From Ralstonia sp. A12 (GTDB lineage Bacteria > Pseudomonadota > Gammaproteobacteria > Burkholderiales > Burkholderiaceae), in assembly GCF_000801955.1 (NCBI RefSeq), contig NZ_JSZO01000014.1:1-64000 (forward strand): DNA of 64,000 nucleotides, given 5' to 3'. Below the pieces are notes generated by a model. The model ran no database searches. It was not told the origin of the DNA and saw only the letters and a program-made list of their open reading frames with translations. This document shows, piece by piece, positions 146 to 10,889 of this stretch (positions are counted from its first letter, which is position 1; each line of letters begins with the position of its first letter). The translations under genes were made by a program, and so were the position numbers.

Positions 146-365
146 GATGGCGCCTTGAATTTCTGTTGCAAGGAGGAAAAAGGAAGGGGAACTGTCTGAG
201 CGAAGCGAGTTTTCCCCTTCCCCTCCTTGCAACAGAAATTCAAGGGGAAGTCGCCATCTCGGGCGCGCCTTTCTTTTGCTTACTTTTCTTTGGCAAGACA
301 AAGAAAAGTGAGTCAGCCCCGGCAGGGGATGAAACAAGGGATGGACCACCAAAAAAAACCATCCC
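146..365 (+). repeat. Multi-hairpin dispersed element, copy 1
   Basis: This is one of three copies in the window. An outer clamp GATGGCG (146-152) pairs with CGCCATC (252-258). Inside it a 22-bp perfect arm pair (155-176 with 222-243) and a 10-bp pair (182-191 with 212-221) enclose a conserved loop, with an A5 bulge at 177-181. A second hairpin is ACTTTTCTTTG (282-292) with CAAAGAAAAGT (299-309). A third is CCCC-GGCA-GGGG (317-328). A fourth is GGGATGG (338-344) with CCATCCC (359-365). It lies 13 bp beyond the bioB stop, so it may end or stabilise that transcript. No transposase is present. Confidence 0.9.
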
Positions 366-378
366 CAACTCAAACGCA

Positions 379-1458
379 TCAATCAGCCGGCGTAATGTCG
401 ATATGGCAATGCGAAGAGTGCGACCCCGCATGCGCGTCATGGTGCATGTGATCCTGCACCTCAACCCGCATCCCCAACCGCGCCAGCAGCTTGCGATCCG
501 CATCCGCTTCCGGGTTATCCGTCGTCAGCAGCTTCTCGCCATAGAAGATCGAATTCGCCCCCGCCATAAAGCACAGAGCCTGCAGCGCATCATCCATCGC
601 CTCACGGCCAGCCGACAAACGCACCATCGCCTTGGGCATCGTGATCCGCGCCACCGCAATCGTGCGCACAAAATCGAATGGATCGAGTTCCTCGTTGCCC
701 GCCAGCGGCGTGCCTTCCACCTTCACCAGGTTGTTGATCGGCACCGAATCCGGATACGGCTCCATGTTCGCCAGCTCGGCGATCAGGCCCGCACGCTCGT
801 GCACCGATTCCCCCAGCCCGACGATGCCGCCGCAGCACACATTGATGCCCGCGTCACGCACATGCTCCAGCGTGTCGAGCCGATCCTGATACGTGCGCGT
901 GGTGATGATCTCGCCGTAGAACTCGGGCGCGGTGTCGAGGTTGTGGTTGTAGTAGTCCAGCCCCGCATCCTTCAACTGCGCAGCCTGCTCCTGCTTGAGC
1001 ATGCCGAGCGTGACGCAGGTCTCCAGCCCCATCGCCTTCACACCACGCACCATGTCGGCCACGGCATCGAGTTGATGCGGCTTCGGGTTGCGCCATGCAG
1101 CGCCCATGCAGAAGCGGCTCGCGCCGTTTTGCTTGGCGCGCGATGCGGCTTCCAGCACTTCGTCGATCGGCATCAGCTTTTCAGCCTCGACGCCGGTGTC
1201 GTAGCGCGCCGATTGCGGGCAGTACGAGCAATCTTCCGGGCAGCCACCGGTCTTGATGGACAGCAGCGTCGAGAGCTGCACCGCATTCGCATCAAAGTTG
1301 GCGCGGTGCACTTGCTGTGCCTGGAACAGCAGGTCGTTGAACGGCAGCGCGAACAGCGCTTCGATGGCTTCGCGGCTCCAGCGTGCGTCGGGCGCCTGAC
1401 CCGGCGTGACGGGCACCTTGGCGGCGTTCGGAACGAAGTTGAGCGGAGTGGATTGCAT
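379..1458 (-). CDS. bioB: Biotin synthase
   Basis: BioB is the radical-SAM enzyme that inserts sulfur into dethiobiotin, the last step of biotin synthesis. The 359-residue protein has the CxxxCxxC cluster ligands at C73, C77 and C80 (GGCPEDCSYC), the downstream FCMGAAWR motif and the YNHNLDT motif, and is full length. The ATG at 1458 is chosen because AAGGAAG sits just upstream; a TTG at 1473 is less likely. It is the last gene of a long minus-strand run and starts about 50 bp after liuC. No bioA, bioF or bioD is near. The context links biotin supply to the biotin-dependent methylcrotonyl-CoA carboxylase. Confidence 0.97.
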   Translation of the reverse strand: MQSTPLNFVPNAAKVPVTPGQAPDARWSREAIEALFALPFNDLLFQAQQVHRANFDANAVQLSTLLSIKTGGCPEDCSYCPQSARYDTGVEAEKLMPIDEVLEAASRAKQNGASRFCMGAAWRNPKPHQLDAVADMVRGVKAMGLETCVTLGMLKQEQAAQLKDAGLDYYNHNLDTAPEFYGEIITTRTYQDRLDTLEHVRDAGINVCCGGIVGLGESVHERAGLIAELANMEPYPDSVPINNLVKVEGTPLAGNEELDPFDFVRTIAVARITMPKAMVRLSAGREAMDDALQALCFMAGANSIFYGEKLLTTDNPEADADRKLLARLGMRVEVQDHMHHDAHAGSHSSHCHIDITPAD

Positions 1459-1509
1459 GAGGACTTCCTTCAAATGATTTCTTGATGCGTGGTTTCGTTG
1501 TTATGCGGG

Positions 1510-2304
1510 TCAGGCCGGCAGCAGCCAGTTCGGCTTGCGCTTGCCCAGGAAACTTTGCACGCCTTCGCGGCCTTCATCGGAGGCACGAATGGCGGCGATG
1601 CGTTCAGCGGTATCCGCCAGCAGCGCGTCGTTGACGGGCGCTCCGGCCACTTCGCGCACGAGGCGCTTGCTCTCGCGCACGGCGTTCGGGCTGTTGGCGA
1701 CGAGCGCCGTGGTGATGTCGCTCACCTTGGCGTCGAGCGTGTCTGCGCTCACCAGTTCGTGCACGAGGCCCAGGCGATGCGCCTCGGCAGCGGAGAAGCG
1801 TTCCGCGGTGATGAAGTAGCGGCGCGAGGCCTGCTCGCCCAGCGCGCGAATCACGTACGGGCTGATGGTGGCTGGAATCAGCCCGAGCTTGGCTTCCGAC
1901 AGGCAGAAGTTGGCGGTGTCGACGGCGACGACGATGTCGCACGCCGCGACTAGGCCGACGCCGCCGGCATACGTATCGCCCTGCACGCGGGCGATCACTG
2001 GCTTCGGGCATGCATAAATGCTGCGCAGCATTTCGGCCAGGCGCAGGGCATCGGCGCGGTTCTCGTCATCGGAGTAGCCGGCCATCTTCTTCATCCAGTT
2101 CAGATCGGCACCGGCGCAGAACGCAGGGCCGTTGCCGGACAGGACGATGGCGCGCACGCTGGGCTCCTGCGCGAGTGCTCGGAACGCGCCGGTCAGCTCG
2201 GCGATGACGGTCTCATTGAACGCATTGCGCACATCCGGCCGGTTGAGCGTGAGCGTGGCGACGGCGCCGTGCTGGGCGAAAGCGAGGGTCTCAAAGGCGT
2301 TCAT
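1510..2304 (-). CDS. liuC: Enoyl-CoA hydratase family, probable methylglutaconyl-CoA hydratase
   Basis: This 264-residue crotonase-fold protein has the oxyanion-hole segment NGPAFCAGADLNWMKKM and the second conserved loop around GDTYAGGVGLVAACDIV. In leucine breakdown LiuC hydrates 3-methylglutaconyl-CoA, the product of methylcrotonyl-CoA carboxylase, to HMG-CoA. The assignment to LiuC rather than another crotonase comes from liuB lying one gene upstream. Its ATG overlaps the stop of the upstream hydrolase gene by 4 bases (ATGA), which suggests translational coupling. HMG-CoA lyase is not in the window. Confidence 0.85.
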   Translation of the reverse strand: MNAFETLAFAQHGAVATLTLNRPDVRNAFNETVIAELTGAFRALAQEPSVRAIVLSGNGPAFCAGADLNWMKKMAGYSDDENRADALRLAEMLRSIYACPKPVIARVQGDTYAGGVGLVAACDIVVAVDTANFCLSEAKLGLIPATISPYVIRALGEQASRRYFITAERFSAAEAHRLGLVHELVSADTLDAKVSDITTALVANSPNAVRESKRLVREVAGAPVNDALLADTAERIAAIRASDEGREGVQSFLGKRKPNWLLPA

Positions 2305-10279: not shown

Positions 10280-10496
10280 GGGGATTTGTTCTTGTGGTGC
10301 ATCCCCTGTTTTCATCCCCTGCCGGGGCTGACTCACTTTCTTTGTCTTGCCAAAGAAAGTAAGCAAAGAAAGGCGCGCCCGAGATGGCGACACCCTCCTT
10401 GAATTTTTGTAACCGTGCGGAGACGGGGAAAACTCGCTGCGCTCAGACAGTTCCCCGTCTTTTTTCCGCCCGCTTACAAAAATTCAAGGCGCCATC
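10280..10496 (-). repeat. Multi-hairpin dispersed element, copy 2 (inverted)
   Basis: This copy has the same layout as copies 1 and 3 on the opposite strand. The clamp GATGGCG (10383-10389) pairs with CGCCATC (10490-10496). A 14-bp perfect arm pair is at 10399-10412 and 10474-10487, and a 10-bp inner pair is AGACGGGGAA (10421-10430) with TTCCCCGTCT (10451-10460). The second hairpin is 10335-10344 with 10351-10360, the third CCCC/GGGG is at 10316-10327, and the fourth is GGGGAT (10280-10285) with ATCCCC (10301-10306). Arm sequences differ from the other copies but still pair. It lies upstream of the thiolase gene. Confidence 0.9.
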
Positions 10497-10554
10497 AAGG
10501 GCAGGAAGGTCAACGGCCAAACCGTTGGTGTGCGTGCTCTGTCAGGCTCTTGTG

Positions 10555-10602
10555 TGTTGCTGTTGCTGTTGCTGTTGCTGTTGCTGTTGCTGTTGCTGTT
10601 GC
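10555..10602. repeat. Hexanucleotide microsatellite, eight TGTTGC units
   Basis: Eight uninterrupted TGTTGC units fill 10555-10602. They lie between hairpin element copies 2 and 3, which face away from each other. Open frames cross the array (for example a Cys-rich one on the plus strand), but none has a ribosome site or family resemblance, so I treat it as non-coding. Tracts like this change length easily by slippage. Confidence 0.9.
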
Positions 10603-10666
10603 TTTGCGTCTTGCCGCGTACCTAATACTGCGTTTGTGCGTCGATGGTGTTGCCGTTGTTGCCCTA

Positions 10667-10889
10667 GATGGCGCCTTGAATTTCTGTTGCAGGGAGGAAA
10701 AAGGAAGGGAAACTGTTTGAGCGCAGCGAGTTTTTCCCTTCCCCTCCCTGCGACAGAAATTCAAGGGGAAGCCGCCATCTCGGGCGCGCCTTTCTTTGCT
10801 TACTTTCTTTGGCAAGACAAAGAAAGTGAGTCAGCCCCGGCAGGGGATGAAACAAGGGATGGACCACCAACAAAAAGCCACCCCTGAAC
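10667..10889 (+). repeat. Multi-hairpin dispersed element, copy 3
   Basis: The clamp GATGGCG (10667-10673) pairs with CGCCATC (10773-10779). The long arms are 10676-10697 with 10743-10764 (one G-T wobble), and the inner arms are GGAAGGGAAA (10703-10712) with TTTCCCTTCC (10733-10742). The second hairpin is 10802-10811 with 10818-10827, the third is CCCC/GGGG at 10835-10846, and the fourth is GGGATGG (10856-10862) with the imperfect partner CCACCCC. It ends 14 bp from the carbonic anhydrase stop, the same placement as copy 1 has beside bioB. Confidence 0.9.

What the first reader, a model, noticed from the sequence alone, without database searches (positions are those of the whole stretch)
146..10889. 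Three copies of a multi-hairpin element whose arms change together
The sequence shows it directly. In all three copies the bases of the stems differ but pairing is kept. Outer arm: copy 1 TTGAATTTCTGTTGC with GCAACAGAAATTCAA; copy 2 TTGAATTTTTGTAA with TTACAAAAATTCAA. Middle arm: copy 1 CAAGGAGG/CCTCCTTG; copy 3 CAGGGAGG/CCTCCCTG. Inner arm: copy 1 GGAAGGGGAA/TTCCCCTTCC; copy 3 GGAAGGGAAA/TTTCCCTTCC; copy 2 AGACGGGGAA/TTCCCCGTCT. Second hairpin: an extra T in copy 1 (ACTTTTCTTTG) is matched by an extra A (CAAAGAAAAGT). Loops (CTGTCTGAGCG-type) and the tail (AGTCAGCCCCGGCAGGGGATGAAA) stay conserved. This is the mark of selection on an RNA or single-stranded DNA fold, or of arm-to-arm templated repair. 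I recall AAAGAAAGT-type hairpins being frequent in Burkholderiales, but I cannot verify that, nor a known function.
Basis: partly seen in the sequence, partly recalled or inferred. Interest (0 to 1): 0.75.

Follow-up and report, generated by a model that had tools for sequence, protein, structure and literature searches.

The report
Widespread bacterial hairpin element with swapped stems
The three repeats are copies of a many-copy, folded, non-coding DNA element whose stem sequences change freely while the fold and the hairpin tip stay the same, and hairpins with the same tip turn up in very different bacteria, so it looks like an undescribed, structure-recognised element.

Summary
The window holds three copies (138-366 +, 10285-10503 -, 10659-10884 +) of a multi-hairpin intergenic element; the own genome has at least 43. 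Covariation is strong: 22 of 66 pairs show changes on both sides. Among mismatches, G·T exceeds A·C on one strand (88 v 9 in the genus, 58 v 19 in named foreign loci), which points to selection on that folded strand rather than arm-to-arm repair alone, although one clear repair event exists (L293). In two genus mates 41 of 80 groups are inverted pairs with tails outward, none the reverse. The H1 tip TGTYTGAGCGNAGCGAGTT occurs in several bacterial phyla on hairpins with unrelated but complementary arms (median score 13.5 v 5.5), followed by a similar pyrimidine-first second hairpin in 56 of 127 cases (random windows 14 of 635). In 348 genomes of the phylum the tip has 157 matches, in 15 genomes; read backwards it has none. 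No Rfam family, convincing linked gene or printed description was found with the searches named. Most likely it works like a REPIN/BIME: a structure-recognised dispersed element that settles at gene ends. The machinery is unidentified.

The parts
138..366 (+). Copy 1, whole element (H1, H2, H3 and tail)
140..264 (+). Copy 1 long hairpin H1 (GCCC...GGGC)
177..181 (+). 5-nt A bulge in the 5' arm of H1
   Evidence: position class
193..211 (+). Conserved H1 tip TGTCTGAGCGAAGCGAGTT
279..312 (+). Hairpin H2, CTTACTTTTCTTTG-GCAAGA-CAAAGAAAAGTGAG
313..332 (+). Hairpin H3, TCAGCCCC-GGCA-GGGGATGA, covarying
10285..10503 (-). Copy 2, whole element, inverted partner of copy 3
10377..10502 (-). Copy 2 hairpin H1 (tip 10431-10449)
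10311..10384 (-). Copy 2 H2+H3 core
10659..10884 (+). Copy 3, whole element
10661..10785 (+). Copy 3 hairpin H1 (tip 10714-10732)
10778..10851 (+). Copy 3 H2+H3 core
10285..10884 (.). Inverted pair (minus then plus, tails outward) between the carbonate dehydratase gene and the acetyl-CoA acetyltransferase gene

Best explanation
The copies belong to a dispersed, non-coding, multi-hairpin element: long hairpin H1 with free arms, often an A-rich 5' bulge about 10 bp below a conserved tip, then pyrimidine-first hairpin H2, then in this genus hairpin H3. Supported by the sequence data: it folds, pairing on the tip strand looks selected, it is intergenic, it often forms inverted pairs with tails outward, stems differ between orthologous sites as paired cassettes, and some sites hold what look like pairs collapsed between H2 or H3 arms. 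Inferred: it spreads the way REPINs do, as a non-autonomous unit recognised through its folded tip (and H2) by an unidentified trans-acting protein, and persists at gene ends, where it may also serve as a two-way hairpin barrier for transcripts or exonucleases.
For: At least 43 copies in the own genome and 24-70 model matches in each of 16 genus genomes; 22 of 66 pairs with double changes; G·T over A·C on the tip strand; 41 minus-plus pairs and no plus-minus pair among 80 groups in G009+G015; in named foreign loci 10 minus-plus neighbours within 1 kb v 1 plus-minus and 1 plus-plus; 126 of 127 foreign tips outside genes called by my own caller; arms complementary within loci, unrelated between loci; a bulge of 3-6 nt on the 5' arm in 70 of 115 hairpins, 56 of these 70 at 7-11 bp; H2 downstream in 56 of 127; backward pattern 0 of 348 genomes; patchy presence, 15 of 348 genomes, and 28, 23 and 0 copies in three genomes of one genus.
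Against: No mobilising gene was found: ORFs shared near the tip were the element itself or, where I looked them up, common families (ABC ATPase, histidine kinase, LysR, RlmN-like). Y1 transposases (PF01797) have no match at E<=0.001 in 5 of 23 element-bearing genomes; of 20 Y1 loci fetched, out of 31 matches, one had a tip core nearby. Copies sit at the same sites across the genus, so recent movement is not shown. No target duplication was established. The conserved location would also fit a host function without mobility. 71 of 127 foreign tips had no H2 by my criteria, 21 of 115 hairpins no bulge and 24 a 3' bulge.
Confidence: 0.45

Rival explanations
1. A host RNA element at gene ends: the transcribed hairpins end transcription or protect or process mRNA 3' ends; the tip is a protein-binding RNA loop.
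For: In G009 and part of G015 none of 32 inverted pairs lies between divergent genes; 10 are convergent and 22 codirectional. In foreign loci 27 convergent v 9 divergent of 90 with genes called on both sides. Heads of single copies face a gene 3' end 21 of 25 times. Pairing kept at orthologous sites. G·T asymmetry.
Against: Patchy within genera; no U-run directly behind H1 (by eye); tails face 3' ends 57 and 5' ends 32 times, so one transcribed strand is not clearly preferred; 2 of 25 single copies lie between divergent genes; no Rfam family; the GC-GNA-GC tip also fits a DNA mini-hairpin.
Confidence: 0.3
2. Neutral palindromes whose arms are kept alike by template switching between arms (quasipalindrome correction).
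For: L293 minus copy: bulge and G·G mismatch erased together, 5' arm the exact complement of the 3' arm. Sites that look like collapsed pairs at one locus suggest that the palindromes are unstable.
Against: G·T v A·C asymmetry; bulge kept in most genus copies and common elsewhere; tip and H2 shared across phyla, which repair cannot explain.
Confidence: 0.1
3. A folded single-stranded DNA site for a general host process (a priming site or a recombination site of attC type) that is also carried by phages.
For: The tip occurs in an intergenic stretch of a filamentous-phage-like contig (L352) and in 11 further viral contigs with a similar left flank; copies cluster around dnaA on the main replicon (17 of 34 and 16 of 26 groups within 350 kb).
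Against: These phage sites have short or no arms; 333 of 348 phylum genomes lack the exact tip; no origin clustering on the second replicons.
Confidence: 0.1

Closest known systems
REP/BIME/REPIN repeats (with RAYT transposases)
   Same: Many copies, intergenic, palindromic, inverted pairs, near gene ends.
   Different: Three hairpins and about 190-230 bp per copy; no linked RAYT found; stems free in sequence; tip and H2 shared across phyla, while I recall REPs as genome- or genus-specific families (of PMC3733652 I saw the start of the abstract).
Integron attC sites
   Same: Recognised through a folded strand with variable arms (recalled).
   Different: No integron was looked for and attC core motifs were not tested; the conserved part here is the tip, not the base.
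Stem-loop repeat families of Petrillo 2006 and Cozzuto 2008 (PMC1590033, PMC2267715)
   Same: Repeated intergenic stem-loops; the 2006 abstract reports a bias to the 3' side of genes.
   Different: The 2008 families came from sequence clustering (abstract, passages); 'Ralstonia' occurs 0 times in its held text; a tip shared by unrelated stems would probably not cluster (inference).
Intrinsic terminators
   Same: Hairpins close behind genes.
   Different: Conserved tip and second hairpin, pairs of fixed orientation, no U-run directly after H1 (by eye).

Membership tests
REP/BIME/REPIN | GTAG or CGTC tag at one end of the repeat (title and abstract start of PMC3733652) | tested here: not met
   A1 alignment, 27 copies: H1 foot GCCCT/GGGC, H2 5' foot GCTTAC, GCCTAC or GCTGAC; read by eye only
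REP/BIME/REPIN | Linked RAYT (Y1) transposase flanked by the repeat | tested here: not met
   The single Y1 match of the own genome has other repeats around it; 1 of 20 foreign Y1 loci fetched has an exact tip core nearby, on one side
REP/BIME/REPIN | Intergenic inverted pairs | tested here: met
MITE (ERIC-like) | Terminal inverted repeats with target-site duplication | tested here: inconclusive
   One possible empty site (L460) at one locus; no duplication established
Integron attC | Core motifs at the hairpin base and an integron integrase | not tested
   no call made
Intrinsic terminator | GC-rich hairpin followed directly by a U-run | tested here: inconclusive
   By eye H1 is followed by GCGCC and then TTTCTTT; the scan between gene and element had on average 24 nt to scan, 4 of 78 positive v 6 of 24 other convergent gene ends over 100 nt
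Any Rfam 15 family | Score at or above the gathering cut-off | tested here: not met
   window and 18 of the 118 named foreign loci; only sub-cut-off hits at E<=5

The most novel reading that the evidence does not exclude
A previously undescribed class of nucleic-acid element spread over the bacterial domain and recognised by shape: a shared hairpin tip (GA-GC-GNA-GC-GA) plus second hairpin, carried on arms of any sequence, with its own unknown recognising protein.
Probability: 0.35. Interest if true: 0.92.

Novelty: new variant of a known kind. Interest (0 to 1): 0.75.

Why it matters
An element with free stem sequence escapes sequence clustering, which may be why it seems to have gone unnoticed although one genome can hold 70 copies. 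It gives a natural experiment in selection on a folded strand, with orthologous sites, a repair event and recombinants visible. If a protein that binds the tip exists, it would be a widespread, unknown structure-specific nucleic-acid binder. It also explains contig breaks: 22 of 43 copies in the own genome lie within 150 bp of a contig end.

Tried and rejected
Rfam at gathering and at E<=5: only sub-threshold hits, mostly miRNA models that fit long hairpins; rejected. Phage collection by blastn: no match. Plasmid collection: 13 records, mainly the H2-H3 core. RAYT/Y1 transposase as mobiliser: not supported (20 of 31 Y1 matches looked at, exact tip core only). A gene shared near the tip: the largest ORF cluster, 14 loci, mostly Variovorax and relatives, overlaps the element itself; members looked up from the clusters of 7, 6, 4 and one of 3 loci are ABC ATPase, histidine kinase, RlmN-like and LysR proteins, two gave no family; the other clusters of 3 were not looked up. 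A short form of the element first suspected is an artefact of contig ends. A gene flanked by two copies was considered as cargo and dropped (the protein reads to me as an outer-membrane efflux lipoprotein, not looked up). Viral hits, 87 v 1 for the backward pattern, overstate the case: 39 of 87 share one flank, which in the one contig examined (L389) lies inside a replication O-like gene; I take it as coincidence. The terminator scan was uninformative. Literature: motif strings and word searches gave no description in the rows listed; this covers open-licence papers only.

Rows dropped before counts: 27 of 43 copies entered A1, 30 A2 and 33, the rest cut by contig ends or not matching my trimming patterns. 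In one search, 121 of the 124 rows were used; I left out three weak ones (E 1e-6, 2.5e-4, 0.006), two of them reverse-strand matches over the same place as a listed row. One search covers all 44 G009 groups and 13 of 36 G015 groups. Of 136 tips in 118 loci, 127 in 111 loci had long enough flanks; 115 passed the score and 120. In one search most mismatches are neither G·T nor A·C (235 in the genus, 164 foreign), partly the fixed imperfections. Relatives and paralogues are not independent in any of these counts.

Full report
Observation. The three copies and their quoted arms are in the sequence. Copy 2 is on the minus strand and forms an inverted pair with copy 3; copy 1 lies at the start of its contig. 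The neighbours are bioB, a carbonate dehydratase and an acetyl-CoA acetyltransferase (NCBIfam). The genus is probably Ralstonia, because a record titled Ralstonia carries closely similar H1 arms (L164); the species is unknown.

Copies. A search of the own genome with copy 1 gives 56 rows: 43 distinct copies and 13 reverse-strand matches of the palindromic arms (40 of 74 first-look candidates were scored, so 43 is a lower bound). All 16 genomes of the genus have 24 to 70 matches to a model of H2+H3 (model, search). 58 of 150 family genomes and 30 of 349 phylum genomes match it at E<=0.001 (sampled, stricter filters, few candidates scored per genome, and a model tuned to one genus).

Fold. RNAalifold on 27 full copies gives 66 pairs, 22 with at least one double change. 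H1 consists of stem segments that vary in concert: GATGGCG/CGCCATC against TGCGGCG/CGCCGCA, TTGCAGGGAGG-type against AAGCGGGCGG-type, and several inner stems. H2 shows CTTAC/GTGAG, CTTAC/GTAAG and CCTAC/GTAGG, and a form with an inserted pair (GGGCAAGACC); H3 shows AGCCCC/GGGGAT, GGCCCC/GGGGAC, GGTCCC/GGGAAC, GGGCCC/GGGCAC and GTGCCC/GGGTAC.

Which strand. If arms were only copied from each other, mismatches should be symmetric between strands. On the tip strand isolated mismatches are G·T 88 v A·C 9 in 118 hairpins of G000, G009 and part of G015, and 58 v 19 in 120 hairpins of named foreign loci; other mismatch kinds number 235 and 164. Copies are not independent; counted as distinct sequence contexts in the genus it is 26 v 8. 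G·T is tolerated in both RNA and DNA helices (established knowledge), so this gives the strand, not the molecule. A bulge, and in one stem type a G·G mismatch, survive in most copies. One copy (L293) shows both erased at once, a repair event; L306 and L450 have arms of two types that do not pair, probably recombinants.

Pairs and sites. In two genus mates with few contigs (G009, 3; G015, 2) the cores form 80 groups: 41 minus-plus pairs, 39 singles, no plus-minus pair. Named foreign loci give 10 minus-plus neighbours within 1 kb, 1 plus-minus (L169) and 1 plus-plus (L174). By my own gene caller none of the 32 pairs examined lies between divergent genes; 10 are convergent and 22 codirectional; 2 of 25 singles are divergent. 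Tails face gene 3' ends 57 times and 5' ends 32; heads of singles 21 and 4. At bioB 11 of 11 uncut genus mates have the pair (4 of 15 matching genomes are cut by contig ends, the own one included; in L284 the plus copy has a deletion). At the carbonate dehydratase gene 9 of 12 uncut have both tips, one none, one a single tip, one two H2 loops without a tip match (4 of 16 cut). At a third locus 14 of 16 are uncut: 7 pairs, 1 single, 3 with one shared H2 only, 2 with one shared H3 only, 1 without. I read the five as collapsed pairs. So pairs are old, stay in place, and can apparently be lost between symmetric hairpin arms. Between orthologous sites whole paired stems differ, which I read as exchange between copies.

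Origin. Both main replicons start at dnaA; 17 of 34 and 16 of 26 groups lie within 350 kb of it (expected 6.8 and 5.2); the second replicons show no significant excess (6 of 10 and 1 of 10).

Beyond the genus. Foreign H1 hairpins have arms unlike those of the genus, AT-rich in AT-rich genomes, and many keep the tip or a variant. Arms are not part of the pattern, yet their complementarity has median 13.5 against 5.5 for arms swapped between loci and 6.0 for random places. A bulge of 3-6 nt sits on the 5' arm in 70 of 115, 56 of them 7-11 bp from the tip; 24 have the bulge on the 3' arm and 21 none. A pyrimidine-first hairpin follows the tip in 56 of 127, precedes it in 8; the purine-first control follows in 2; random windows 14 of 635. 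In 348 phylum genomes the exact tip has 157 matches in 15 genomes, all tagged own, same order or same class; the backward pattern has none. So 333 of 348 lack the exact tip.

Mechanism. The apical sequence GC-GNA-GC resembles the DNA mini-hairpin d(GCGAAGC), called extraordinarily stable in passages of PMC6582339; that other N serve as well is recalled. Flanking GA steps could form sheared pairs (inference). I favour recognition of the folded tip by an unknown protein and REPIN-like spread, with a role at gene ends as a side effect or later use. The RNA reading is nearly as good. Simple repair is not enough. No mobiliser was found.

Literature. String and word searches found no description in the rows listed. 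Seen: PMC2267715 abstract and passages, PMC1590033 abstract, PMC3733652 listing plus a term search with no hit, PMC6582339 passages; PMC3116915 and PMC2817692 only in the listing.

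Noticed in passing
G000 contigs: 22 of 43 copies lie within 150 bp of a contig end, so the element probably breaks short-read assemblies; copy 1 of the window is one of them.
   Followed up: partly
window 1-45 and 10550-10605: TTGCTG-type tandem repeats sit in the centre of the pair and beside copy 1, and vary in length between species (L279, L281, L283).
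   Followed up: no
L452, L453, L455, L458, L464: One shared H3 or H2 hairpin where other species have an inverted pair, apparently deletions between symmetric arms.
   Followed up: partly
L352 and 11 viral contigs with a similar left flank: L352, filamentous-phage-like by PHROGs, carries the tip in an intergenic stretch with short or no arms; the proteins of the others were not looked at.
   Followed up: partly
L389 5158-6228: The tip sequence occurs inside a replication O-like gene; 39 of 87 viral hits share this flank; taken as coincidence.
   Followed up: partly
L157 (own genome C5): The only Y1_Tnp match of the genome lies between repeats of the type AATTGGGGACAGATT, unrelated to the element.
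   Followed up: partly
L118, L151: A 441-aa gene is flanked by a minus and a plus copy in two species.
   Followed up: partly
L429 2314: In genome G324 a Y1_Tnp match lies about 185 bp from an element tip; 19 other Y1 loci had no exact tip core.
   Followed up: yes
L255, L266 (cluster with L239, L253): Two of four loci whose ORFs cluster near the tip encode an RlmN-like radical SAM protein, in a Bacillota and a Nitrospirales record; could be chance.
   Followed up: no
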